Of a DNA stretch of 64,000 nt, positions 2,681 through 61,226 are shown one piece after another (positions within the stretch are counted from its first letter, which is position 1; each line of letters begins with the position of its first letter). The stretch spans positions 1 to 64,000 of the forward strand of contig NZ_SLWU01000004.1 in the NCBI RefSeq assembly GCF_004345675.1. The letters run 5' to 3'. The position numbers were made by a program, and so were the translations under genes. The notes under the pieces were generated by a model. That model searched no databases, was not told the DNA's origin, and saw only the letters and a list, made by a program, of their open reading frames with translations. This DNA is from Caldanaerobacter subterraneus. Lineage in GTDB: Bacteria; Bacillota; Thermoanaerobacteria; Thermoanaerobacterales; Thermoanaerobacteraceae.

Positions 2681-2718
2681 TATGCCAGCACTCAATAATG
2701 GGTGCTGGCATATTTTTT
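2681..2718 (+). terminator. Intrinsic terminator of acoR
   Basis: A perfect 10-bp stem (ATGCCAGCAC at 2682-2691 with GTGCTGGCAT at 2702-2711) with a 10-base loop is followed by ATTTTTT. It lies 36 bases after the acoR stop. Its 3' arm overlaps the sigma-54 promoter at 2706-2721. Confidence 0.75.
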
Positions 2719-2721
2719 GCA
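2706..2721 (+). promoter_or_regulatory. Sigma-54 (-24/-12) promoter of the acoABC genes
   Basis: TGGCATATTTTTTGCA matches the -24/-12 consensus TGGCACGNNNNTTGCW with GG and GC exactly ten bases apart. The activator gene upstream carries GAFTGA, so a sigma-54 promoter is expected here. A sigma-A-like alternative, TTGACA at 2801-2806 with TATATT at 2823-2828 (16-base spacer), lies closer to the gene. I favour sigma-54 as the regulated promoter but cannot exclude both. Confidence 0.65.
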
Positions 2722-12523: not shown

Positions 12524-12614
12524 CCTTCGATAAGGGCAAACCCGTCGAAAGGCGGGGGCGCAAAGCCACGGGCCTAAATCCCTGATTGGGACATGGTAGC
12601 CGGGCTGCCGAAGG
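12524..12614 (+). ncRNA. Cyclic di-GMP-I (GEMM) riboswitch
   Basis: The leader contains the GEMM-I signatures AGGGCAAACC, a GAAA tetraloop, GGCGCAAAGCCACGGGCCTAA and ATGGTAGCCGGG in the correct order. The closing stem pairs CCTTCG (12524-12529) with CGAAGG (12609-12614). GGCTGCCG (12603-12610) is perfectly complementary to CGGCAGCC (12643-12650), the 5' arm of the following terminator. An antiterminator can therefore form only when the 3' part of the aptamer is released, so c-di-GMP should switch the operon off. This direction is an inference from pairing. Confidence 0.92.
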
Positions 12615-21642: not shown

Positions 21643-23268
21643 GTGAAAATAACTTTTTTGGGAGCTGCTAAGGAAGTTACAGGTTCATGTTATCTTGTGG
21701 AGACGGAAAATGCTAGGTTTTTAGTTGACTGTGGCATGTTTCAGGGTGGAGAAGTAGAAGACGAGCTAAACTATCAAGAATTTATTTTTGATATAAAAGA
21801 TATCGATTTCGTACTTTTAACCCATGCTCATATAGATCACAGTGGCAGAATTCCTGTGCTTTACAAAAGAGGGTACAGAAAGAGGATTTACGCAACTCAC
21901 GCTACAGTTGACCTGTGCAGGTACATGCTGCCGGATAGCGGGCACATCCAGGAAATGGAAAGCGAGTGGAAGAACAGAAAGAGGAAAAGGGCTGGAAAGC
22001 CTTTGAGGGATCCACTTTATACGGCTGAAGAGGCAGAAGAATCTATAAGCATATTTTATGGTGTTGACTACGGGGAAGTGATAGAGCCTGCACCTCATAT
22101 AAAAGTGAGGTTTAATGATGCTGGGCATATGCTTGGCTCGTCTATAATTGAAGTGTGGGTAAATGAAAAGGGAAAAGAGACTAAAATAGTGTTTTCAGGA
22201 GATCTAGGGAATAAAAAGGTGCCTCTTTTGAGAGATGTAACTCCTATAAATGAGGCTGATTATGTTCTCTGTGAGTCTACATACGGCAATAGGATTCATG
22301 AGGAGGTCGGGGATAGGGCAAAGAGGTTGATGGAAATTATAACCCGCACTATTAAAAGAGGGGGAAATGTTATTATTCCATCTTTTGCTGTTGGAAGGAC
22401 ACAGGAGATATTATATGAGCTTCACAAAGAGAGGGATTTGTATAAAGATGAGATAGAATTTTTGAACAACATCCCTGTGTATGTAGACAGTCCTCTTGCC
22501 ACCTCAATAACAGATGTGTTTGCAAAGCATCCAGAGTGCTTGGATGATGAAACGAGGGAATACATCAAAAAAGGAGAAATGCCTTTAGATTTTCCCAATT
22601 TGCACTTTACCCACAGTGCGGAAGAGTCTAAGGCTTTGAATGAGATTAAGACGCCCATGATAATTATCTCAGCTAGCGGCATGTGTGAGGCAGGTAGGAT
22701 AAAGCACCACCTAAAGCACAATTTATGGAGGCCGGAGTGCACAGTCCTTTTTGTTGGGTATCAGGCAAAAGGCACTTTAGGGAGGAAACTTTTAGATGGA
22801 GAAAAAGATGTGAAGATACTTGGAGAGGATATACACGTTAAGGCTGAAATTGAATATATTGAGAGTTTTTCAGGTCATGCCGACCAAAGAGGTATACTGG
22901 AATGGATTTCTAATTTTAAGAAAAAGCCCAAGAAAATATTCATAGTGCACGGCGAGGATGAGGCACAGGAAGAACTGGCTGATAAGATAGAAGCACAATT
23001 TGGCATAGAGACTTTGATTCCTTCAAGGTACGATGTTTACGATTTTGATAAGGAAGAGCTTATAAAAGGAGAGGTTGAGGATAAAGAAAAGTTTAAATTG
23101 GAGCTTAACAATAAATTAGAAGAGATGAAGTTAAGAAGTGAAAAGGCATTTAATAAGCTACAGGAGATATTAGACAGGAAAGATGGAAAAGATTTAACCG
23201 GCATAATGCTTGAGATAGACAATATAAATGAAAGCCTTATGAAGCTTTATAGGGAACTTTTGGATTGA
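21643..23268 (+). CDS. Metallo-beta-lactamase/beta-CASP RNase
   Basis: The protein has 541 residues from GTG at 21643 (AAGGGGATTTACT before it). It has the metallo-beta-lactamase metal motif LTHAHIDHSGRIPVLYK near residue 65, a second ligand region NDAGHMLGSS near 160 and FSGDLG near 185, then a beta-CASP insert and the C-terminal motifs SASGMCEAGRI and SFSGHADQ. Related proteins are endo- or exoribonucleases (TTHA0252/CPSF-like). The C-terminal 80 residues are a charged coiled coil. It follows hepT by 18 bases and ends the RNA-related cluster before a terminator. Confidence 0.88.
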   Translation: MKITFLGAAKEVTGSCYLVETENARFLVDCGMFQGGEVEDELNYQEFIFDIKDIDFVLLTHAHIDHSGRIPVLYKRGYRKRIYATHATVDLCRYMLPDSGHIQEMESEWKNRKRKRAGKPLRDPLYTAEEAEESISIFYGVDYGEVIEPAPHIKVRFNDAGHMLGSSIIEVWVNEKGKETKIVFSGDLGNKKVPLLRDVTPINEADYVLCESTYGNRIHEEVGDRAKRLMEIITRTIKRGGNVIIPSFAVGRTQEILYELHKERDLYKDEIEFLNNIPVYVDSPLATSITDVFAKHPECLDDETREYIKKGEMPLDFPNLHFTHSAEESKALNEIKTPMIIISASGMCEAGRIKHHLKHNLWRPECTVLFVGYQAKGTLGRKLLDGEKDVKILGEDIHVKAEIEYIESFSGHADQRGILEWISNFKKKPKKIFIVHGEDEAQEELADKIEAQFGIETLIPSRYDVYDFDKEELIKGEVEDKEKFKLELNNKLEEMKLRSEKAFNKLQEILDRKDGKDLTGIMLEIDNINESLMKLYRELLD

Positions 23269-23307: not shown

Positions 23308-23336
23308 TTGCTCCCGCTTTCAAAATGTGATATAAT
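23308..23336 (+). promoter_or_regulatory. Promoter of the lysine riboswitch transcript
   Basis: TTGCTC (23308-23313), 17-base spacer, TATAAT (23331-23336), followed by the riboswitch about 45 bases downstream. Confidence 0.7.
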
Positions 23337-23383
23337 ATAATTGCACTTTGATAAGCTTTACATCAAAAATAGATATTTTAATA

Positions 23384-23562
23384 GCGCATAAATAGAGGAG
23401 CGGCCAAGCATGTATTTGGCGAGGTGTTAAGGAGAAGAACCTCCAATACTCGCTGAAGAAGGTTTGGCTGCCGAAAGGGTGAGCTTGTTCTTGAGCTCAT
23501 CCTTGGTGGTAAACACAAAGTTTACCACTGTCATGGGACCTCCCATGAAGCGCTATTTATGC
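23384..23562 (+). ncRNA. Lysine riboswitch (L box) with ON-type layout
   Basis: L-box signatures occur in order: AGAGGAGCG after the P1 5' strand, GCTGAAGAAGG, GGCTGCCGAAAGGG, a hairpin GGTAAACACAAAGTTTACC and ACTGTCAT. P1 pairs GCATAAATAG (23386-23395) with CTATTTATGC (23553-23562), ten perfect pairs. The same 3' strand is the 5' arm of the terminator at 23548-23599, whose 3' arm (23581-23590) is identical to the P1 5' strand. Aptamer P1 and terminator therefore exclude each other, so lysine should prevent termination and switch the downstream activator gene on. In the usual biosynthetic L box the P1 strand belongs to an antiterminator, so lysine causes termination. Confidence 0.9.
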
Positions 23563-23599
23563 AGTGAAAATATTTTCATTGCATAAATAGCGCTTTTTT
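23548..23599 (+). terminator. Terminator competing with riboswitch P1
   Basis: AAGCGCTATTTATGC (23548-23562) pairs with GCATAAATAGCGCTT (23581-23595), and the inner AGTGAAAA/TTTTCATT extends the stem to more than 20 bp with a tiny loop, followed by TTTT. It is unusually strong, so readthrough without lysine should be rare. Confidence 0.88.
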
Positions 23600-23680
23600 G
23601 TTAGAAATGAAGAAATACTTACATGTTGAAAATATTTTCGGTGTTTTTGCTTTTAATTTTACTCTCAAAGGGGGAGTAAG

Positions 23681-25117
23681 ATGGATTTGAGGTTAAAAGG
23701 ATTACCTCAGGAATTTTACCAAAAAGCGCTGGAGATATTATTAGAAAACATTGATTGGGGTGTACAAATCACTGATAAAGATGGTTATACAATTTATTAC
23801 AATAAAGCTTCTTCGCAAATTGATGGGATTCCTATAGATGAAGCGATTGGAAAGCACGTTTTAGCTATGTTTCCATCCCTTTCTAATAGAGAAAGTACAA
23901 TTTTAAAAGTTTTAAGGACAGGGGAACCTGTTGTCGGACATGAGCAGGAAATTACAAATTGCTATGGACAAAAAGTCAGCCTTTTTACTATTACTCTCCC
24001 CATTGTAATCGATGGAGAAATATGCGGGGCTATTGATATTTCTAAAAACCTCTCCGAAATAAAAAATCTTATGACAAAAGTGATTGATTTGCGAGAAGAA
24101 GTGCGAAATAACAGAAAGAAAAGTGCTGTAAAAGAAAACGAGGAAGCTTATTATACTTTTGATGATATTATTGGAGAATCCAAAGTAATTACAGAACTAA
24201 AGTGCAAGGCTCAAAAAATTGCGAAAAGCAATTCGCCAGTGTTTGTGTATGGTGAGACAGGTACGGGCAAAGAGCTTTTAGTACAGGCAATTCATAATGC
24301 TAGTACAAGGAAGAATGGACCTTTTATTGCTCAAAATTGCGCAGCCCTTCCTGAAAATTTGATGGAGTCAATACTTTTTGGAACAGTAAAGGGAAGCTTT
24401 ACTGGTGCAGAAAATCGCCCTGGTTTGGTAGAGCTGGCTGACGGAGGGACATTATTTTTGGATGAGATTACTTCTTTAAGTCTTGACCTTCAGGCAAAGC
24501 TTTTACGCTTTTTGCAGGAAGGGTATATAAGGAGAATAGGAGATAGTAAGGTTCGGAAAGTAGATGTGAGAGTTATTGCTGCTTCTAACATTTCTCCTTA
24601 TGAAGCTTTAGAGAAGAAAATTTTAAGACCTGACCTTTTTTATCGATTAAGTACCATTGTCTTGTATGTGCCACCTCTTAGGGAGAGAAAAAGTGATATT
24701 CCTCTTTTAGTTAAGTACTTTATCAAGGAATTTAATTGGCAATTGGGGAAGGATATAAAAGGGATAAGCGAAGAGGTGGAAAGAGCCTTGATGAGTTTGT
24801 CCTGGCCGGGAAATGTGCGGGAATTAAAGGGAGTTATAGAGTATGCGGCTAATTTTTGCGAAGGTGAAATAATTCAGTTGCATGACCTTCCTGACCACAT
24901 TTTAAGAAATGCCTTTATAGAGGGAGAAAAAGAGATAGCAGTAGATACTATCGGGATAGAAGGGGATCTCAGAAGCTTTCTAGCAAAAGTTGAATATGAG
25001 CTTATTACTAAAACTTTAAAAAAGACAAATGGGAATATAAGTAGAGCAGCAGAAATTTTGGGTATTCCGAGACAGACTTTACAGTACAAAATAAAAATGT
25101 TAAAAATAAATATTTAA
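23681..25117 (+). CDS. Sigma-54-dependent activator of lysine catabolism (PAS-AAA+-Fis)
   Basis: The protein has 478 residues with a PAS domain (about 15-125), an AAA+ domain (about 160-395) with Walker A GETGTGKE near 190 and Walker B GGTLFLDE near 262, and a Fis helix-turn-helix at 445-475 (NISRAAEILGIPRQTLQYKI). The sigma-54 contact loop reads GSFTGA where GAFTGA is usual. ATG after GGGGGAGTAAG. It is behind the lysine riboswitch and just upstream of a sigma-54 promoter serving the lysine fermentation operon, so it very probably activates that operon. The PAS ligand is unknown. Confidence 0.85.
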   Translation: MDLRLKGLPQEFYQKALEILLENIDWGVQITDKDGYTIYYNKASSQIDGIPIDEAIGKHVLAMFPSLSNRESTILKVLRTGEPVVGHEQEITNCYGQKVSLFTITLPIVIDGEICGAIDISKNLSEIKNLMTKVIDLREEVRNNRKKSAVKENEEAYYTFDDIIGESKVITELKCKAQKIAKSNSPVFVYGETGTGKELLVQAIHNASTRKNGPFIAQNCAALPENLMESILFGTVKGSFTGAENRPGLVELADGGTLFLDEITSLSLDLQAKLLRFLQEGYIRRIGDSKVRKVDVRVIAASNISPYEALEKKILRPDLFYRLSTIVLYVPPLRERKSDIPLLVKYFIKEFNWQLGKDIKGISEEVERALMSLSWPGNVRELKGVIEYAANFCEGEIIQLHDLPDHILRNAFIEGEKEIAVDTIGIEGDLRSFLAKVEYELITKTLKKTNGNISRAAEILGIPRQTLQYKIKMLKINI

Positions 25118-25148: not shown

Positions 25149-25188
25149 GATGGGTTTTTATCAGAACGAGCTGTGAATCTTTTATAGG

Positions 25189-25214
25189 AAAAGGCCGAAA
25201 AATGGCCTTTTTTC
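25189..25214 (+). terminator. Terminator after the activator gene
   Basis: AAAAGGCC (25189-25196) pairs with GGCCTTTT (25204-25211), loop GAAAAAT, then a T-run. It insulates the activator gene from the operon, whose own promoter starts just after it. Confidence 0.8.
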
Positions 25215-25229
25215 TTTTTACTCAATGCT

Positions 25230-25245
25230 TGGTATGGATTTTGCA
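25230..25245 (+). promoter_or_regulatory. Sigma-54 promoter of the lysine fermentation operon
   Basis: TGGTATGGATTTTGCA has GG and GC ten bases apart and the TTGCA -12 box of sigma-54 promoters (consensus TGGCACGNNNNTTGCW). Expected transcript start near 25257, about 40 bases before the first gene. Confidence 0.75.
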
Positions 25246-25297: not shown

Positions 25298-25690
25298 TTG
25301 AAAGCCACAATAAGAGTCAGGATGAGTCTTCATGATGCTCACTATGGAGGAAATTTAGTAGATGGAGCGAGAATTTTACAGCTTTTTGGGGATGTGGCGA
25401 CAGAGCTTTTGATAAGGCACGATGGAGATGAGGGGCTTTTTAGAGCTTATGACAGTGTAGAATTTTTGGCGCCTGTTTATGCGGGAGATTTCATAGAAGC
25501 TACAGGTGAGATAGTAGAAGTAGGAAATACTTCGAGAAAGATGGTCTTTGAGGCGAAAAAGGTGATAGCAGCAAGGCCTGATATCAGTGATTCTGCGGCA
25601 GAAGTGCTGGAAGAACCTATTGTAGTGTGCAGGGCAAGTGGCACTTGTGTTGTGCCAAAAGAAAAGCAGAGGTACAAAAAAGAAGGGTAG
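25298..25690 (+). CDS. kal: 3-aminobutyryl-CoA ammonia-lyase
   Basis: The hotdog-fold protein has 130 residues from a TTG at 25298 that follows GGGAGGGGATACAGG. In lysine fermentation Kal removes ammonia from 3-aminobutyryl-CoA to give crotonyl-CoA. The visible sequence [29 protein letters not shown] and [16 protein letters not shown] fits a single hotdog domain, and its position at the head of the kce-kdd-kamA operon supports the assignment. It is the first gene after the sigma-54 promoter. Confidence 0.85.
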
Positions 25691-25701
25691 GTGAGTGAAG
25701 G

Positions 25702-26529
25702 GTGGAGAAATTGATAATTACTGCGGCTATATGCGGAGCTGAGGTCACAAAGAAGCATAATCCTAATGTGCCTTATACTGTTGAGGAGATGGTGAGAGAG
25801 GCTTTATCTGCATATAATGCAGGAGCTAGCATAATTCACTTGCACGTAAGGTATGATGATGGTACCCCTACACAGGACAAAGAAAGGTTCAGAGAAGTGA
25901 TTGAAGCGATTAAAGCAAAATGCCCTGATGTCATAATTCAGCCTTCAACTGGTGGAGCTGTTGGCATGACTCCTGAAGAAAGGTTACAGCCGGTTTACTT
26001 AAAGCCAGAGATGGCATCACTAGACTGTGGCACAATGAATTTTGGCGGAGATGAAATATTTGTAAATACAGAAAACATGATAATAGAATTTGCCACCAAG
26101 ATGAATGAACTGGGAGTGAAGCCGGAACTTGAAGTATTTGACAAAGGAATGATAGATGCAGCGATAAGGCTTCACAAAAAAGGATATATAAAGGCTCCAA
26201 TGCACTTCAATTTTGTGATGGGAGTAAATGGCGGAATTTCGGCTGAGATGAGGGACTTTGTGTTCTTGATGGAAAGCATTCCTCCAGGAAGCACATTTAC
26301 TGCTACAGGAATAGGACGCTATGAATTCCCTGTAGCTACTATGGCTATACTTGCAGGAGGTCATGTGAGAGTTGGCTTTGAGGATAACGTATACCTCGAA
26401 AAAGGCGTTCTGGCAAAGTCCAATGGTGAACTTGTAGAAAAAGTAGTGAGAATTGCAAGAGAGCTGGGAAGAGAAATTGCAACCCCTGATGAGGCCAGAA
26501 AAATATTAGGGTTAGAGGTGAAGCCATGA
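25702..26529 (+). CDS. kce: 3-keto-5-aminohexanoate cleavage enzyme
   Basis: The 275-residue TIM-barrel protein (DUF849/BKACE family) starts at GTG 25702. It converts 3-keto-5-aminohexanoate and acetyl-CoA into 3-aminobutyryl-CoA and acetoacetate. Zinc-binding HLHVRYDDG near residue 46, QPSTGG near 81, a serine/asparagine-rich FNFVMGVNGG near 173, and FEDNVYLEKG near 230 are the family motifs. It overlaps the next gene by four bases. Confidence 0.9.
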   Translation: MEKLIITAAICGAEVTKKHNPNVPYTVEEMVREALSAYNAGASIIHLHVRYDDGTPTQDKERFREVIEAIKAKCPDVIIQPSTGGAVGMTPEERLQPVYLKPEMASLDCGTMNFGGDEIFVNTENMIIEFATKMNELGVKPELEVFDKGMIDAAIRLHKKGYIKAPMHFNFVMGVNGGISAEMRDFVFLMESIPPGSTFTATGIGRYEFPVATMAILAGGHVRVGFEDNVYLEKGVLAKSNGELVEKVVRIARELGREIATPDEARKILGLEVKP

Positions 26530-27191
26530 GGAAGGTTGTTACTTTTGAAGAGTTGAAGCCTTTATTTAAAGATGGAATGACATTGATGATCGGTGGATTT
26601 CTTGCAAATGGCACACCTGAGAAGTTAATTGACCTTCTCATAGAGTTAAACGTTAAAGACCTTACTATAATTGCCAATGATACCAGTTTTCCAGACAGGG
26701 GTATAGGGCGTTTAGTTGTGGCCGGGCTTGTTAAAAAAGTTATAACTTCTCATATAGGTACTAACCCTGTTACAGGAAAGTTGATGAATGAAGGAAAAAT
26801 TGAAGTAGAGCTCGTTCCACAGGGGACACTTGCAGAAAGGATAAGAGCTTATGGAGCAGGGTTGGGAGGTATCTTGACTCCTACAGGAGTCGGCACAATG
26901 GTAGAAGAAGGGAAACAAAAAATAACTGTGAATGGAAAAGAGTATCTCCTTGAACTTCCACTGGGAGCAGATATAGCGCTTATTAGAGGAAGTATTGTAG
27001 ATGAGTTTGGAAATATCTATTACAAAGGTACGACGAGAAATTTCAATCCTATAATGGCTCTTGCAGCTAAAACAGTTATCGTGGAGGCAGAAAAAATAGT
27101 CAAAGTAGGAGAAATAAAGCCAGAAGATGTCATGACGCCAGGAGTATTAGTGGATTATATCGTAAAAGGAGGGGAAGGCGATGATAACTGA
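26526..27191 (+). CDS. atoD: CoA-transferase subunit A (butyryl-CoA:acetoacetate type)
   Basis: The protein has 221 residues. It is the alpha subunit of a class I CoA transferase that, in this pathway, moves CoA from butyryl-CoA to acetoacetate. Features: [21 protein letters not shown] near the N-terminus and [20 protein letters not shown] further on. The start overlaps the kce stop (ATGA), and its own end overlaps subunit B by 11 bases, indicating translational coupling. Confidence 0.87.
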
Positions 27192-27846
27192 TCAGGAACT
27201 GGCAAAGCAGATAATAGCAAAAAGAATTGCAAAAGAGCTCAAAGATGGGCAGCTGGTGAATTTGGGAATTGGTCTTCCCACTCTAGTAGCCAATTACATT
27301 CCCGAAGGAGTGCACGTGATATTCCAATCAGAGAATGGAATTACAGGTATGGGACCTATGCCAGAGCCCGGAAAAGAGGATGTGAACATAATCAATGCCG
27401 GCGGGCAGTATGTGACAGTTCTGCCTGGCGCAGCGTTTTTTGACAGTGCATTTTCCTTTGCACTTATAAGAGGAGGACATGTGGACGTTACCGTGCTAGG
27501 AGCTTTAGAAGTAGATGAAGAGGGAAATTTAGCTAACTGGATAATACCTGGAAAGTTAGTTCCTGGCATGGGCGGAGCAATGGACCTTGCTACAGGAGCC
27601 AAAAGAGTAATTGTGGCTATGCAGCATACTGCTAAAGGGCAGCCAAAGATTTTGAAAAAATGCCGCCTTCCTCTCACGGCCAAAGGCAAAGTGAGTCTTA
27701 TAGTTACAGAGCTTGCAGTGATAGAAGTGACAAAAGAGGGACTGCTTCTCAAAGAAATTCACAGGGATACATCTATTGAAGAGGTCAAGTCTTTGACAGA
27801 GGCAAATTTAATTATTCCAGATGATGTAAAATATATGGATGTGTAA
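27181..27846 (+). CDS. atoA: CoA-transferase subunit B
   Basis: The 221-residue beta subunit carries the active-site glutamate in the family motif [11 protein letters not shown] near residue 45, with [17 protein letters not shown] before it and [20 protein letters not shown] after it. ATG at 27181 follows AAAAGGAGGGGAAGGCG. Together with subunit A it would yield butyrate and acetoacetyl-CoA for energy conservation. Confidence 0.88.
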
Positions 27847-27867
27847 AATTCGAAGAAGGAGGAGGAT

Positions 27868-28914
27868 ATGTTTATGATGGGATGCAAATACGGTTCTCAT
27901 AGAGTAATTGAGCCAAAAGGGGTTTTACCTCAAGCCGCTTATAAAATTTCTAATGATATGAGTGTACTTTATGATAATGAGATATTGATTGATGTTATAG
28001 CTTTGAACATAGATTCTGCAAGCTTTACCCAGTTAAAAGAGGAGGCAGGGGGAGATCCTGAGAAGATAAAGAAGAAGATCCTCGAGATAGTAAATGAGAG
28101 AGGGAAAATGCAAAACCCTGTCACAGGTTCTGGGGGAATGCTGATAGGCAGAGTAGAAAAAATAGGAGAAGCTCTGGTCGGGAAAAGGGACCTCAAAGTA
28201 GGAGATAAGATTGCAACGCTCGTTTCATTAACTCTTACACCTCTTAGAATAGATGAGATTTTGGATATAAAGATGGATATAGAAAGAGTTGAAATAAAGG
28301 GAAAGGCAATACTTTTTGAGAGCGGGATTTATGCGAAGCTTCCTGAGGATATGGAAGAGACCTTGGCACTGGCTGCTTTAGACGTTGCTGGAGCTCCTGC
28401 TCAGACTGCTAAATTGGTAAAGCCCGGTCAGAGTGTCATGGTGTTAGGAGCAAATGGGAAATCCGGTATGCTATGTTGCTATGAAGCTAAGAAGAGAGTA
28501 GGTCCTACTGGAAAGGTTATAGGTGTGGTGAGAAGGGAAGAAGCAAAGAAAAAGGTGGAAGAACTGGAGATATGCCACGAGGTAGTTATAGCGGATGCTC
28601 AAAAGCCTTTAGAAGTTTTGGATAAAGTTCTAAAGGCCAACGGAGGAAAAGAAGTAGATATTGCTATAAACTGTGTAAATACGCCTAACACAGAAATGTC
28701 CACAATTTTACCTGTGAGAGATGAAGGAATTGCCTACTTCTTCTCCATGGCGACAAGCTTCACAAAAGCAGCCTTAGGAGCAGAAGGGGTTGGGAGGGAT
28801 ATAACAATGATCATAGGAAATGGATATACAAAAGACCACGCAGAAATTACGCTTCAAGAGCTCAGAGAAAATGAAAAATTGAGAAAAGTTTTTGAAGAAA
28901 TGTATGCTAAATGA
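27868..28914 (+). CDS. kdd: L-erythro-3,5-diaminohexanoate dehydrogenase
   Basis: The protein has 348 residues. It is an NAD(P)-dependent deaminating dehydrogenase that makes 3-keto-5-aminohexanoate, the substrate of Kce. A medium-chain-dehydrogenase-like layout is seen with a Rossmann motif VLGANGKSGMLCCYEAKKR near residue 193. ATG at 27868 after GAAGGAGGAGGAT; a second ATG lies three codons later. Assignment relies on operon position and overall resemblance to Kdd. Confidence 0.87.
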   Translation: MFMMGCKYGSHRVIEPKGVLPQAAYKISNDMSVLYDNEILIDVIALNIDSASFTQLKEEAGGDPEKIKKKILEIVNERGKMQNPVTGSGGMLIGRVEKIGEALVGKRDLKVGDKIATLVSLTLTPLRIDEILDIKMDIERVEIKGKAILFESGIYAKLPEDMEETLALAALDVAGAPAQTAKLVKPGQSVMVLGANGKSGMLCCYEAKKRVGPTGKVIGVVRREEAKKKVEELEICHEVVIADAQKPLEVLDKVLKANGGKEVDIAINCVNTPNTEMSTILPVRDEGIAYFFSMATSFTKAALGAEGVGRDITMIIGNGYTKDHAEITLQELRENEKLRKVFEEMYAK

Positions 28915-28952
28915 GGACGGCTGTGATAGTTTAAGAGGGGGAGATGTATAAA

Positions 28953-30206
28953 ATGAGAGTTAACAGAAGACATGAACTTTTTGGGCATGTACCAGACAGC
29001 GACTGGTACAACTGGAAGTGGCAGATTGCAAATAGAATAGAGACAGTGGAAGAGTTGAAAAAATACCTTCCATTGTCGGAAGAAGAGGAAGAAGCTATTT
29101 CTAAGGCATTGCAGAAGTTGAGAATGGCAATTACGCCCTATTACCTTTCTTTGATAGACCCCAATGACCCTAATGACCCGATAAGAAAAAGAGCAGTGCC
29201 GACAATCCATGAGCTTTATCAGGCACCGGAGGACTTAGTGGACCCGCTTTATGAGGATGTGGATTCACCTGTACCTGGACTTACCCACAGGTATCCTGAT
29301 AGGGTATTGATGCTTGTTACAGACCAGTGCTCCATGTACTGCAGACACTGCACAAGGAGAAGGTTTGCTGGAGAAACTGATGCTCCCATGCCGATGGATA
29401 AAATAGAAAAGCAGATTGAGTATATAAGGAATACCCCACAGATAAGAGATGTGCTGATTTCAGGTGGAGATCCTCTCACTTTATCTGATTCACGGCTTGA
29501 AGAAATTATAAAGAGATTAAGAGAAATTCCTCATGTGGAGATAATAAGAATTGGTTCATCAGTACCTGTAGTGCTGCCTATGAGAATAACTCCGGAGCTT
29601 GTCAATATGCTTAAAAAATATCACCCGATATGGCTCAACACCCACTTTAACCATCCGCACGAAATAACAGAAGATTCAAAGAGAGCATGTGAAATGCTAG
29701 CAGATGCTGGAATACCTTTAGGAAACCAGACAGTACTTCTAAGGGGAGTAAATGACTGTGTTCATGTTATGAAAAGGCTGGTGCATGAATTGGTAAAAAT
29801 AAGGGTAAGACCTTACTACATCTATCAGTGCGATTTGTCATTTGGGCTTTCTCATTTTAGAACTCCCGTTTCCAAAGGTATTGAAATTATAGAAGGTTTA
29901 AGAGGACACACTTCTGGTTACTGCGTACCTACATTTGTAGTTGATGCCCCGGGAGGAGGAGGAAAGATTCCTGTTGGACCAAACTACGTAATTTCTCAGT
30001 CCCATGATAAAATAGTTTTGAGAAATTATGAAGGCGTCATTGTGACGTATGTTGAGCCAAAAGATTACACTCCAGGTCCTTGTGTATGCGATGAAGAAGT
30101 TCCAAAATCTGAAGGTGTTGCAGGATTAATGCAGAAGGATACCATTGGAGTATTAGAGCCAGAGAATTTAGAAAGGAAAAAGAGAAGGAGAAAAGATGAG
30201 AAGTGA
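28953..30206 (+). CDS. kamA: Lysine 2,3-aminomutase
   Basis: The radical-SAM, PLP-dependent enzyme, 417 residues from ATG 28953 (an ATG three codons upstream is almost inside the GAGGGGGAG ribosome site). It converts L-lysine to L-beta-lysine. The radical-SAM cluster is CSMYCRHC near residues 126-133, and the PLP lysine lies in DAPGGGGKIPV. Sequence and length agree closely with characterised clostridial KamA. The 3' end overlaps the next gene by 11 bases. Confidence 0.95.
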   Translation: MRVNRRHELFGHVPDSDWYNWKWQIANRIETVEELKKYLPLSEEEEEAISKALQKLRMAITPYYLSLIDPNDPNDPIRKRAVPTIHELYQAPEDLVDPLYEDVDSPVPGLTHRYPDRVLMLVTDQCSMYCRHCTRRRFAGETDAPMPMDKIEKQIEYIRNTPQIRDVLISGGDPLTLSDSRLEEIIKRLREIPHVEIIRIGSSVPVVLPMRITPELVNMLKKYHPIWLNTHFNHPHEITEDSKRACEMLADAGIPLGNQTVLLRGVNDCVHVMKRLVHELVKIRVRPYYIYQCDLSFGLSHFRTPVSKGIEIIEGLRGHTSGYCVPTFVVDAPGGGGKIPVGPNYVISQSHDKIVLRNYEGVIVTYVEPKDYTPGPCVCDEEVPKSEGVAGLMQKDTIGVLEPENLERKKRRRKDEK

Positions 30207-31221
30207 TATTCTTGACCTTATAAAAAATTACAGGACTATCTCTATAATAGGAATGGCAAAAAATGTAGGAAAAACAACTGTATTAAATTATCTTATCAGT
30301 AAGGCCAGGGGTATTTATACCCTTGGTCTTACCTCTATAGGAAGAGATGGAGAGGAATACGACCAGGTTTCCTTTTTCCCAAAGCCGCGGATTTACGTTG
30401 AAGAGAGCACTTTAATTGCCACAGCGAGGGAAGCACTTTTCCGAAGCGATATAACAAAGGAGATAGTGGGAACTACAGGTATATATACTCCGATGGGAGA
30501 AATAATTGTAGCGAGGGCTTTAAGTGATGGCTATGTGGACCTTGCCGGTCCTTCCATTACTAAAGACCTCAAGAGGATAAGCGAGTTTTTGATCTCAATA
30601 GGTGCAGATAAAGTTTTTATAGACGGGGCTTTAAACAGAAAGACCCAGGCTTCTCCAGCTGTATCTGAGGCTACTATTTTATCAACAGGAGCTGTTTTAT
30701 CTCCTGATATGGAAAAGACAATAGATGAAACGGTGTTTACAGTAAAACTTCTGACAGTGCAGAAAGAAAGCGATAGAGAGATAATTGTAAAAGCTAGTAA
30801 AATCCTTAAAAATTCAAATTTGGGGTTTATTTATGAAGGCGGAGAGTACAAAACTGTGGAGGTATTAACTGCTATTGATGCGTCAAAAGAGATTGTAGAG
30901 AATTTAAATGGAGCAAAGTATGTGGTGATAAGAGGAGTGATTACAGATAAGTTGATCAATGATGTAATGACTTCCACTGATAAGTATAAAGGAGTAGTCT
31001 TTTTGGCAGAGGATGCTACGAAGCTTTTCATAGAGGAAGAGACCTTTGTAAAATTTCAAAAGGCGGGCGGTATTTTTAGGGTAGTATTTCCTATAAATTT
31101 GATCTGTGTCGCTGTAAATCCTATATCTCCCACAGGTTACAGATATAATGGAAAAGAATTTTTAAATAGATTGAGGGAAAAATTAGATCTTCCTGTCTTT
31201 GATGTGATGGGTGGTGATTGA
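30196..31221 (+). CDS. kamB: Lysine 5,6-aminomutase reactivase subunit KamB
   Basis: The 341-residue protein has an N-terminal P-loop-like ISIIGMAKNVGKTTVLNYL near residue 15. Proteins of this kind occur between kamA and kamD in lysine-fermenting bacteria and are described as part of a reactivating system that restores adenosylcobalamin in the 5,6-aminomutase. It overlaps both neighbours by 11 bases. The functional label follows from this gene order and family knowledge; nothing in the sequence alone proves it. Confidence 0.75.
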   Translation: MRSDILDLIKNYRTISIIGMAKNVGKTTVLNYLISKARGIYTLGLTSIGRDGEEYDQVSFFPKPRIYVEESTLIATAREALFRSDITKEIVGTTGIYTPMGEIIVARALSDGYVDLAGPSITKDLKRISEFLISIGADKVFIDGALNRKTQASPAVSEATILSTGAVLSPDMEKTIDETVFTVKLLTVQKESDREIIVKASKILKNSNLGFIYEGGEYKTVEVLTAIDASKEIVENLNGAKYVVIRGVITDKLINDVMTSTDKYKGVVFLAEDATKLFIEEETFVKFQKAGGIFRVVFPINLICVAVNPISPTGYRYNGKEFLNRLREKLDLPVFDVMGGD

Positions 31222-32713
31222 TATTAAATTCTTAACTGAAAAAGAAAGAGAACAAGTAGGATTTAACTATGTTATTTCAAAGCTTCAAGTTATAACTCCA
31301 TATGGAAGAGAAGAGCTAAAAAATGCAAGGCCTTATAAGAGAGAAGAAAGAGAAAAACTTGAAAGGGAATATGAGTACGTCGACCTTTTGAAGGAAAGTT
31401 TAGAGAAGGATAAGGAAATATTTTTTAAGATTTTAAAACCGCTATTTAAGATAAAAGATATAAGGAACAGCCTTAAAAGGTGCATAGAAGGGAAAGTGTT
31501 AGATGAGGTGGAATTTTATGAGATAAAAATTTTCGCTCTACTGAGCGAAGAGTTAAGGCTTTTGATTGGAAGGTTGAATTTAGATATTGAAGATATAAAG
31601 CTTGTTTCTTTAACTCCTGTATTGGATCTTTTAGACCCTCAGAAAAAGAGAATTGCTACTTTTTATGTCTACGACGAATATTCCTGTAAGTTAAAAGAGA
31701 TAAGAGAAAAGAAAAGGGAAATTGAGAGGCAGATATTTGCAGAAACTGATAGAGAAAAAATTGAAAAATTAAGGGAGGAAAGGCTTGATATAGTTGCACT
31801 AGAACAAAAAGAAGAACTTGAGGTAAAAAAGAGTCTATCTGAAAAATTGCGCAAATATGTAGACCTTATTGAAAAAAATATAAAGGCTATAGGAAGATTC
31901 GATTTTTTGATGGCAAAGGCTAAACTGGCAATCGAGTACAATGGAGTGAAACCCACGATAAATGACGAGATAAAAATACTTTTTGAAGATGTTATAAATC
32001 CTCAAGTTGCAGATATTTTAAAAACCCAAGAAAGAGAGTTTACCCCTCTAACTATTGAATTAAAGAGCGGGACAACTGTTATCACAGGAGCCAATATGGG
32101 GGGAAAAACTGTAGCTTTAAGAACTTTTGCCTTAAATCTTTTGCTTGCCATGATGGGATTTTTCCCTTTTGCTAAAAAAGTATCTTTTCCTATGCTGGAT
32201 TTTATTCATTTTGTCTCAGAAGATCTGCAATCAATTTCAAGAGGTCTGAGTAGTTTTGGTGCAGAAGTTATGAAGTTAAAGGAAGTAATAGAAGATATAA
32301 AAAAAGGGACAGGATTTGTGGCATTAGACGAAATAGCAAGGGGCACAAATCCTGAAGAGGGACTTTATATTGTGAAGGCTATCTCAAAATATTTGAACGG
32401 TTTTTCTTCTATGACTGTATTAGCTACCCATTATGAAGGGGTGATAGAGGATGACATGGTGCACTATCAGGTCGTAGGGCTTAAAAATGTAAATTTTGAA
32501 GAGTTAAGGCAAAAAATCGTTATAGACGAAGAAAACTCAGTAAAAATTCTCCAGGAACACATGGATTATCGATTAGAAAGAGTGAACCCTAATTGTGAGG
32601 TTCCAAAAGATGCCCTTAACATATGCAGAATATTTGGACTTGAAAGAGAAGTTATAGAGCTAGCTGAGACCTATTATAAGAGGAGGAGAGGGTATGAGAG
32701 AGAGCAAGCTTAA
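31211..32713 (+). CDS. kamC: MutS-like ATPase KamC (aminomutase reactivase)
   Basis: The protein has 500 residues. It shows a MutS-type ATPase domain with Walker A ITGANMGGKTVALRTF near residue 298 and Walker B FVALDEIARGTNPEEG near 372, and a helical core before it. It lacks the mismatch-binding and connector domains of MutS, so DNA repair is unlikely; in lysine-fermentation operons this protein is named KamC and acts with KamB. GTG start at 31211, embedded in the end of kamB; the end overlaps kamD by 20 bases. Confidence 0.78.
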   Translation: MVIDIKFLTEKEREQVGFNYVISKLQVITPYGREELKNARPYKREEREKLEREYEYVDLLKESLEKDKEIFFKILKPLFKIKDIRNSLKRCIEGKVLDEVEFYEIKIFALLSEELRLLIGRLNLDIEDIKLVSLTPVLDLLDPQKKRIATFYVYDEYSCKLKEIREKKREIERQIFAETDREKIEKLREERLDIVALEQKEELEVKKSLSEKLRKYVDLIEKNIKAIGRFDFLMAKAKLAIEYNGVKPTINDEIKILFEDVINPQVADILKTQEREFTPLTIELKSGTTVITGANMGGKTVALRTFALNLLLAMMGFFPFAKKVSFPMLDFIHFVSEDLQSISRGLSSFGAEVMKLKEVIEDIKKGTGFVALDEIARGTNPEEGLYIVKAISKYLNGFSSMTVLATHYEGVIEDDMVHYQVVGLKNVNFEELRQKIVIDEENSVKILQEHMDYRLERVNPNCEVPKDALNICRIFGLEREVIELAETYYKRRRGYEREQA

Positions 32714-34256
32714 TCTTGATTGGGAATTAGTGGATAAAGCCAGAGAAGCTGCGAGAAACATTGTTAAAGATACGCAGAAATTTATAGATGCCCATACGAC
32801 TGTGTCAGTTGAAAGGACGGTGTGCAGACTTTTAGGCATAGATGGCGTAAATGACTTGGGAGTTCCACTTCCTAATGTAGTGGTTGACCATATAAAAAGC
32901 AGGGGAAATCTTTCTTTGGGGGCTGCAATTTATATCGGCAATGCCATGATTTACACAGGGCTTAGCCCTCAAGAAATTGCCGAAAGAGTAGCAAAAGGTG
33001 AACTAGATTTGACTTCGATTCCTATGGCAGACCTTTTTGAGATAAAATTGGCTGTTCAAGATATAGCAGTAAAGACTGTTGAAAAGATAAGAGAGAACAG
33101 GAGAAAAAGAGAGGAGCTTTTAAAGAAATACGGGGATAAGGAAGGGCCACTTCTTTATGTTATAGTTGCGACAGGAAACATATACGAAGATGTGGTTCAG
33201 GCGCAGGCTGCTGCAAGGCAGGGAGCTGATGTCATTGCAGTGATTAGGGCTACAGCTCAAAGCCTTTTAGACTACGTTCCTTATGGACCTACTACCGAGG
33301 GGTTTGGTGGTACTTATGCTACGCAGGAGAATTTCCGGATAATGAGAAAAGCTTTAGATGAGGTATCTGAAGAGCTGGGAAGGTATATAAGGCTTTGCAA
33401 CTATGCATCTGGGCTTTGTATGCCTGAGATTGCTGCTATGGGGGCACTGGAGAGGCTTGATGTGATGCTAAACGATGCTCTTTACGGAATTTTATTCAGA
33501 GATATAAACATGAAGAGAACGATGGTAGACCAGTTCTTCTCAAGGGTAATAAATGGATTTGCAGGAATTATTATAAACACAGGGGAAGACAACTATCTTA
33601 CGACAGCAGATGCTTATGAAAAAGCCCATACTGTATTGGCATCTCAATTGATAAATGAACAGTTTGCACTAATTGCAGGCATTCCTGAGGAACAGATGGG
33701 ATTAGGACATGCTTTTGAAATGAACCCTGACTTAAGGAATGGCTTCTTATATGAGCTTGCTCAGGCTCAAATGGTAAGGGAGATATTCCCCAAAGCGCCT
33801 CTTAAGTACATGCCTCCTACAAAGTACATGACAGGAAATATATTCAAAGGACATGTACAGGATGCTATGTTTAACGTTGTGACTATAATGACAAAGCAAA
33901 GGATACATCTTTTGGGAATGCTGACAGAAGCTATTCATACGCCTTTTATGTCAGATAGAGCGTTGTCTATTGAAAGCGCCAAATATATCTTCAACAATAT
34001 GGCAGATATAGCTGATGAAATTTACTTTAAAGAAGGCGGAATAATTCAAAGAAGAGCTAACGAAGTTTTGAAAAAGGCCTATGAGCTTTTGAAAGAAATC
34101 GAACACGAAGGTTTATTTAAAGCATTAGAGCAGGGTAAATTTGCGGATATAAAGAGGCCGATAGACGGAGGAAGGGGATTAGAAGGCGTAGTGGAGAAAG
34201 ACCCCAATTATTTCAATCCTTTCATTGACCTTATGCTAAGAGGTGATAGAGGATGA
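32694..34256 (+). CDS. kamD: Lysine 5,6-aminomutase alpha subunit
   Basis: The 520-residue protein is the large subunit of the adenosylcobalamin- and PLP-dependent 5,6-aminomutase, which turns beta-lysine into 3,5-diaminohexanoate. Recognisable segments include NLDWELVDKAREAARNIV at the N-terminus, PYGPTTEGFGGTYATQENFR near 200 and PPTKYMTGNIFKGHVQDAMF near 377. ATG at 32694 after AGGAGGAGAGGGT. Its stop overlaps the kamE start (ATGA). Confidence 0.92.
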   Translation: MRESKLNLDWELVDKAREAARNIVKDTQKFIDAHTTVSVERTVCRLLGIDGVNDLGVPLPNVVVDHIKSRGNLSLGAAIYIGNAMIYTGLSPQEIAERVAKGELDLTSIPMADLFEIKLAVQDIAVKTVEKIRENRRKREELLKKYGDKEGPLLYVIVATGNIYEDVVQAQAAARQGADVIAVIRATAQSLLDYVPYGPTTEGFGGTYATQENFRIMRKALDEVSEELGRYIRLCNYASGLCMPEIAAMGALERLDVMLNDALYGILFRDINMKRTMVDQFFSRVINGFAGIIINTGEDNYLTTADAYEKAHTVLASQLINEQFALIAGIPEEQMGLGHAFEMNPDLRNGFLYELAQAQMVREIFPKAPLKYMPPTKYMTGNIFKGHVQDAMFNVVTIMTKQRIHLLGMLTEAIHTPFMSDRALSIESAKYIFNNMADIADEIYFKEGGIIQRRANEVLKKAYELLKEIEHEGLFKALEQGKFADIKRPIDGGRGLEGVVEKDPNYFNPFIDLMLRGDRG

Positions 34257-60989: not shown

Positions 60990-61009
60990 ATATATCAAAA
61001 CAGAATATC

Positions 61010-61187
61010 AGGCTGTGAAGGAGAGGAGTAGGTGTACACTGGCTACAGAGAGGGACATCCCATGGGCTGAAAGGAGTCCCGCCAAAGGTACACTGAAGGT
61101 AGCTCTGGAGCCTGCAGGCCGAAATAGGAGTAGGTCTGATCGGGTTTGCCCGTTACAGCGTGAGTGATAAATGAAGGTGGTACCGCG
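61010..61187 (+). ncRNA. T-box leader of valS
   Basis: The T-box sequence AAGGTGGTACCGCG is at 61174-61187. The stem I region holds AGAGAGGGAC, GGGCTGAAAGGAGTCCC and a GTGTAC/GTACAC stem (61032/about 61090). GTA, a valine codon, occurs at about 61101-61103 in the specifier-loop position (TGAAGGTAGCTCT), in agreement with the downstream gene. Uncharged tRNA-Val should stabilise the antiterminator and permit valS expression. Confidence 0.88.
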
Positions 61188-61192
61188 GAATG

Positions 61193-61226
61193 CCCTTTCG
61201 CCCTTCCTGGGTGAAAGGGTTTTTTT
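61193..61226 (+). terminator. T-box terminator
   Basis: CCCTTTCGCCC (61193-61203) pairs with GGGTGAAAGGG (61209-61219; one G-U) followed by seven T's. Confidence 0.88.

What the first reader, a model, noticed from the sequence alone, without database searches (positions are those of the whole stretch)
23384..23599. Lysine riboswitch wired as an ON switch
P1 of the L box (23386-23395 with 23553-23562) and the strong terminator (23550-23562 with 23581-23593) use the same strand 23553-23562, and the terminator 3' arm repeats the P1 5' strand exactly (GCATAAATAG). Lysine-stabilised P1 therefore blocks the terminator. Most lysine riboswitches switch biosynthesis or transport genes off; here the target is a catabolic activator, for which ON makes physiological sense. 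I recall suggestions of L boxes near lysine catabolic genes in relatives but not an experimental demonstration of this polarity.
Basis: partly seen in the sequence, partly recalled or inferred. Interest (0 to 1): 0.92.

Follow-up and report, generated by a model that had tools for sequence, protein, structure and literature searches.

The report
Lysine-sensing RNA that turns genes on
A lysine-sensing RNA lies in front of the genes a bacterium uses to ferment lysine and is built so that lysine should switch them on rather than off; this was already predicted for relatives, but comparison of 150 such RNAs suggests that the "on" ones form their own family with a distinctive mark in the sensor.

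Summary
Rfam finds a lysine aptamer at 23385-23563 (94.5 bits). P1 (23386-23395/23553-23562) and a strong intrinsic terminator (23550-23562/23581-23593, then TTTTTT) share strand 23553-23562, and GCATAAATAG occurs only at 23386 and 23581 in the window. So lysine-stabilised P1 should block the terminator: an ON switch. ON wiring is supported by comparison. A terminator overlapping P1 was called in 24 of 29 leaders labelled as lysine-fermentation, against 2 of 121 others, and one of those 2 also looks catabolic. In the window the target is a sigma-54 activator with its own terminator and a -24/-12 site before kal; two relatives' loci lack activator and site, and there the switch sits directly on kal. 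The idea is not new: ON lysine riboswitches, and this arrangement in Thermoanaerobacter, were predicted before; I found no experiment. New here, as far as the held library shows: the ON aptamers group together in trees, and an invariant A of the P2 internal loop (120/120 others) is replaced by G (27/30) or U (3/30). Some relatives carry a second terminator that the displaced arm of the first may control. No experiment could be run.

The parts
23308..23336 (+). sigma-A promoter: TTGCTC, 17 bases, extended -10 TG-A-TATAAT
   Evidence: sequence; the extended -10 is conserved in all six leaders of the genus. The -35 matches only 3 of 6, so the consensus scan did not list it.
23349..23363 (+). TGATAAGCTTTACAT, invariant in six leaders of the genus, function unknown
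   Evidence: alignment; the 14-base form occurs exactly once in the own genome
23385..23563 (+). lysine riboswitch aptamer (RF00168)
   Evidence: cmscan 94.5 bits, E 1.1e-23
23386..23395 (+). P1 5' strand GCATAAATAG
23553..23562 (+). P1 3' strand CTATTTATGC, shared with the terminator 5' arm (the switching strand)
23550..23599 (+). intrinsic terminator T1: arms 23550-23562 and 23581-23593 (helix extends to 23548-23595), U tract 23594-23599
23622..23648 (+). decayed remnant of a second terminator that is intact in three relatives (G007, G003, G002)
   Evidence: weak fold, z -0.12; about -2 kcal/mol against -11.8 in the relatives
23681..25117 (+). sigma-54-dependent activator: PAS, AAA+, Fis-type HTH
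   Evidence: Pfam PF00158, PF02954, PF08448
25187..25213 (+). intrinsic terminator after the activator gene
25230..25245 (+). sigma-54 -24/-12 promoter TGGTATGGATTTTGCA before kal
   Evidence: alone at chance level; perfect TGGCATATATTTTGCA before kal in G010, absent from the activator-less loci of G007 and G003
25298..34256 (+). lysine fermentation operon: kal, kce, CoA-transferase A/B, kdd, kamA, kamB, kamC, lysine 5,6-aminomutase alpha
   Evidence: NCBIfam equivalogs over cut-off for kal, kce, kdd, kamA, KamB, KamC and the mutase; subfamily models for the CoA-transferase

Best explanation
A co-transcriptional lysine ON switch. RNA polymerase starts at the sigma-A promoter near 23343 and makes the aptamer first. 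If lysine is bound, P1 (23386-23395/23553-23562) is held long enough that the incoming strand 23581-23593 cannot displace it, T1 does not complete, and transcription reads into the sigma-54 activator gene. Without lysine, the terminator nucleates at its loop-proximal stem (23564-23580), branch-migrates through P1 and terminates. The activator then drives the kal operon from its sigma-54 promoter. Shown from sequence: the parts, the exclusivity, and the comparative association of this wiring with lysine-fermentation genes. Inferred: lysine binding, the kinetics, read-through in the cell, and the activator's action on the kal promoter.
For: Aptamer and the P1/terminator strand sharing. Nascent-RNA folding: P1 0.99 when RNA ends at 23575, replaced by T1 from 23585. 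Classifier: terminator overlapping P1 in 24/29 catabolic leaders against 2/121 others, Fisher 9e-21; one of the 2 (L241) lies before a MaoC hydratase and a CoA-transferase like the one in this operon. P1 3' strand pairs downstream with median z -5.4 in catabolic leaders and 0.0 in others. Compensation: in G010 the end pair of T1 is U-A instead of C-G while P1 keeps G-U. In G007, G003 and G002 the same switch sits directly on kal. -24/-12 sites occur where the activator is and not in L070/L072.
Against: The terminator state is 13.8 kcal/mol lower than the P1 state, more than lysine binding should pay, so the switch works only under kinetic control. No transcription or binding data. The classifier rows are related by descent, so the Fisher p-value overstates independence, and its thresholds were set after the first terminator table had been seen. 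Five catabolic leaders (among them L245, L250, L076, L089) fail it because the hairpin lacks a good U tract or misses the stability cut-off. L244 shows no excess of P1-3'/downstream pairing in the duplex test (z +0.6).
Confidence: 0.88

Rival explanations
1. An ordinary OFF switch: lysine promotes termination, as in lysC/lysP leaders.
For: Most studied lysine riboswitches are OFF; the aptamer is a full RF00168 match.
Against: OFF wiring needs a terminator outside P1 and an antiterminator. Here the only strong terminator uses the P1 3' strand. In 119 of 121 leaders not labelled catabolic no such overlapping terminator was called.
Confidence: 0.04
2. The terminator is too stable to be displaced: the leader terminates constitutively and the activator is made only by leak, the aptamer being a relic or a mere timer.
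For: 13.8 kcal/mol gap; 22-bp terminator.
Against: Aptamer, P1 and T1 are conserved in six leaders of the genus while the spacer and upstream leader diverge, and the sharing recurs across distant clostridia. Terminators that outweigh P1 are expected of kinetically controlled ON switches such as pbuE (established knowledge, not tested here).
Confidence: 0.05
3. ON wiring is right but the ligand is not (only) lysine, for example beta-lysine or another intermediate of this pathway.
For: The catabolic aptamers group apart, with a changed P2 loop and changed P3 and P5 closing pairs.
Against: The junction sequences AGAGG, GCCGAA, UGG, CUG.CA and G.GCU are the same in both groups. That these line the pocket is from memory, not tested.
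Confidence: 0.06

Closest known systems
Predicted activating lysine riboswitch before pspF3-kal-kce in Thermoanaerobacter (Mukherjee, Barash & Sengupta 2017, PMC5584792)
   Same: same kind of gene order and the same claimed positive regulation, in T. tengcongensis and T. wiegelii
   Different: the passages read give no expression-platform mechanism, no experiment, and no comparison of ON with OFF aptamers
ON lysine riboswitches as cited in Barrick & Breaker 2007 (PMC2258182, their ref. 21, taken to be Rodionov et al. 2003)
   Same: metabolite binding buries a piece of the terminator stem in an alternative pairing
   Different: stated in general terms; the primary paper was not held, so which loci it shows could not be checked
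Adenine riboswitch pbuE (B. subtilis) and glycine gcvT ON switches
   Same: works like them: ligand-stabilised aptamer helix competes with a stronger terminator
   Different: different aptamer class and ligand; similarity of mechanism is from established knowledge, not tested
Tandem (double) lysine riboswitches (PMC9481103, 14 representatives)
   Same: two lysine aptamers each with a terminator, as seen here in relatives G326 and G369 before kdd
   Different: the window has one aptamer

Membership tests
Lysine riboswitch (RF00168, L box) | full-length covariance-model match above gathering score | tested here: met
   94.5 bits against 30, positions 1-182
Lysine riboswitch (RF00168, L box) | conserved five-way junction sequences | tested here: met
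   AGAGG, GCCGAA, UGG, CUGUCA, GCGCU present
Lysine riboswitch (RF00168, L box) | AGUA of the P2 internal loop (loop E / sarcin-ricin motif); common but not required, the literature notes variants | tested here: not met
   window has UGUA, most of the ON group GGUA; A in 120/120 other aptamers. The model still scores far above threshold, so this marks a variant and does not exclude membership
Lysine riboswitch (RF00168, L box) | binds L-lysine | not testable with these tools
   needs in-line probing or ITC
Transcriptional ON riboswitch (terminator shares the P1 3' strand) | terminator 5' arm overlaps P1 3' strand, no separate antiterminator needed | tested here: met
Transcriptional ON riboswitch (terminator shares the P1 3' strand) | ligand increases read-through | not testable with these tools
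   needs in vitro transcription
Lysine fermentation operon | kal, kce, kdd, lysine 2,3- and 5,6-aminomutases together | tested here: met
   NCBIfam equivalogs over cut-off

The most novel reading that the evidence does not exclude
Lysine ON switches are not OFF switches rewired case by case but one distinct aptamer lineage, tied to lysine-fermentation genes. Its mark is loss of the otherwise invariant A of the P2 loop, with A-U in place of G-C at the P3 closing pair and U-A in place of C-G in P5, perhaps tuned to a higher lysine threshold. In several members (three leaders of the window's genus, and less strongly leaders in other clostridia) a second terminator is controlled in relay: lysine frees the 3' arm of the first hairpin, which then pairs with the 5' arm of the second.
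Probability: 0.5. Interest if true: 0.68.

Novelty: new member of a known kind. Interest (0 to 1): 0.52.

Why it matters
It would be a natural RNA device that activates catabolism of an amino acid, with the regulator's own leader as sensor, and the same aptamer class stands before lysA in the same genome (contig C3), where ordinary OFF wiring is expected. That allows a direct comparison of how one aptamer fold is wired, and perhaps tuned, to opposite ends. The grouping and its one-base mark give a simple way to tell likely ON from OFF lysine riboswitches in genomes, and a testable structural question about the P2 loop.

Tried and rejected
(1) Relay as the general mechanism: constrained folding supports it in L021/L024/L025, L244, L251 and L092, partly in L245, not in L247, L250, L093, L094, L096, L111; L251 depends on how long P1 is taken to be (0.73 left with 14 pairs, 0.00 with 10), and in the window the second terminator is dead; so it is kept only as a side hypothesis. 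(2) ON-type aptamers at targets other than lysine fermentation: a model of the ON subclass (R1) was run over 398 genomes of the phylum; the best non-catabolic matches whose sequence was read (17) all have the A of AGUA and biosynthesis or transport targets; nothing in 149 genomes of another phylum, where there was no positive control. (3) TGATAAGCTTTACAT as a regulon operator: near matches in the own genome appear to lie inside genes, judged by eye. (4) L238/L239 (P1 3' strand pairs downstream, transporter targets) look like another arrangement and were not pursued. (5) The 2003 paper on the LYS element was not held, nor the review cited for positive regulation.

Full report
What is there. The window carries a complete lysine riboswitch aptamer (RF00168) at 23385-23563. 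P1 is GCATAAATAG (23386-23395) with CTATTTATGC (23553-23562). The next feature is an intrinsic terminator whose 5' arm, GCGCTATTTATGC (23550-23562), contains the whole P1 3' strand and whose 3' arm (23581-23593) repeats the P1 5' strand; the helix extends to 22 pairs with a four-base loop and is followed by six T. The decamer occurs nowhere else in the window, and shuffled downstream sequence never reaches the match. The coordinates in the finding are exact.

How it should work. With RNA ending at 23575, P1 forms with probability 0.99; once the RNA reaches 23585 the terminator displaces it, and in the full leader it wins by 13.8 kcal/mol. So the switch cannot be an equilibrium device; lysine must slow strand displacement while polymerase passes the U tract. 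This is the logic of the pbuE adenine switch (established knowledge). These folds are equilibrium models of successive RNA lengths and do not simulate kinetics.

What it controls. The first gene downstream is a PAS/AAA+/Fis sigma-54 activator, followed by a terminator (25187-25213), a -24/-12 site (25230-25245) and the lysine fermentation operon, with equivalog matches for kal, kce, kdd, kamA, KamB, KamC and lysine 5,6-aminomutase. The -24/-12 site on its own is no better than chance in 64 kb, but in G010, which also has the activator, perfect sites stand before a permease and before kal, and none is found in the loci of G007 and G003, which have no activator at that place and where the riboswitch sits directly on kal. 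Six of the ten genomes of the genus searched, the window's included, carry the catabolic switch.

Comparison. I collected 150 distinct lysine leaders, nearly all from kal-bearing genomes and the window's family. A terminator overlapping P1 was called in 24 of 29 leaders of kal or kdd operons and in 2 of 121 others (the cut-offs were chosen after the table of terminators had been printed). Of the two, L169 (lysA) is a weak call with a normal terminator further down, and L241 precedes a MaoC hydratase and a CoA-transferase alpha subunit in a kal-bearing genome. A second measure, pairing of the P1 3' strand with the 50 bases downstream against shuffles, gives median z -5.4 for the 30 catabolic and 0.0 for the 120 other leaders (L241 counted as catabolic). 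Related sequences are not independent, so the p-values describe contrast and not the number of origins.

The ON aptamers as a group. On a FastTree of aptamers 28 of 30 catabolic ones form a clade (support 0.983). With the signature and P1 columns left out, IQ-TREE's quick search needs two changes, and a tree with all 30 held together is 55 log units better than that search found and is not rejected (p-AU 0.909). An unrejected clade is not proof, and several branches are long. The base before GUA in the P2 internal loop is A in all 120 others and never A in the 30 (27 G, 3 U; the window has U). P3 and P5 closing pairs also differ, while the junction sequences do not. A covariance model of the ON group found, in 398 genomes of the phylum, no ON-type aptamer away from lysine fermentation among the matches whose sequence was read; lower-ranked matches were not all read.

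A side observation. In G007, G003 and G002 a second terminator follows, and its 5' arm plus an upstream decamer are complementary to the 3' arm of the first. Folding with the P1 3' strand removed drops the second terminator from 0.94 to about 0.01, whereas with first hairpins from other leaders it hardly changes. Similar drops occur in L244, L251 and L092, a smaller one in L245; six other leaders show none. The complementarity could also be left over from duplication of the first terminator. In the window the second hairpin has decayed.

Known or new. ON lysine riboswitches that bury terminator pieces are stated in Barrick & Breaker 2007 (PMC2258182), and a positively acting lysine riboswitch before pspF3-kal-kce in T. 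tengcongensis and T. wiegelii is stated in Mukherjee 2017 (PMC5584792). I found no experimental test in the held library, which lacks most subscription journals. The grouping, its mark and the relay were not met in what I read; that is not proof of novelty.

Noticed in passing
window 23349-23363: TGATAAGCTTTACAT, an imperfect palindrome just after the promoter, is invariant in all six leaders of the genus while its surroundings diverge; exact 14-base form unique in the own genome.
   Followed up: partly
L058 1013-1457 and L059 8794-9205: Tandem lysine aptamers, each with its own P1-overlapping terminator, before a kdd-led lysine fermentation operon; L058 has a third terminator with the same 5' arm.
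   Followed up: partly
L076 7765-7990 (Caloramator fervidus): The P1-overlapping hairpin is nearly identical to the window's but is followed by TTATATAATG rather than a U tract, close to the ribosome-binding site; how it acts is unclear.
   Followed up: no
L238, L239: Lysine leaders before a transporter whose P1 3' strand pairs downstream without a U tract; possibly a different, perhaps translational, arrangement.
   Followed up: no
window 61006-61208: T-box leader (RF00230, 100.6 bits).
   Followed up: no
window 12526-12613: c-di-GMP-I-GGC riboswitch (RF03167, 78.9 bits).
   Followed up: no
window 2706-2721: Perfect match to the sigma-54 promoter pattern, TGGCATATTTTTTGCA; gene downstream not examined.
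   Followed up: no
window 21643-23268: Beta-CASP MBL-fold ribonuclease gene upstream of the leader; best NCBIfam match is the type VII CRISPR Cas14 model, but well under its cut-off.
   Followed up: no
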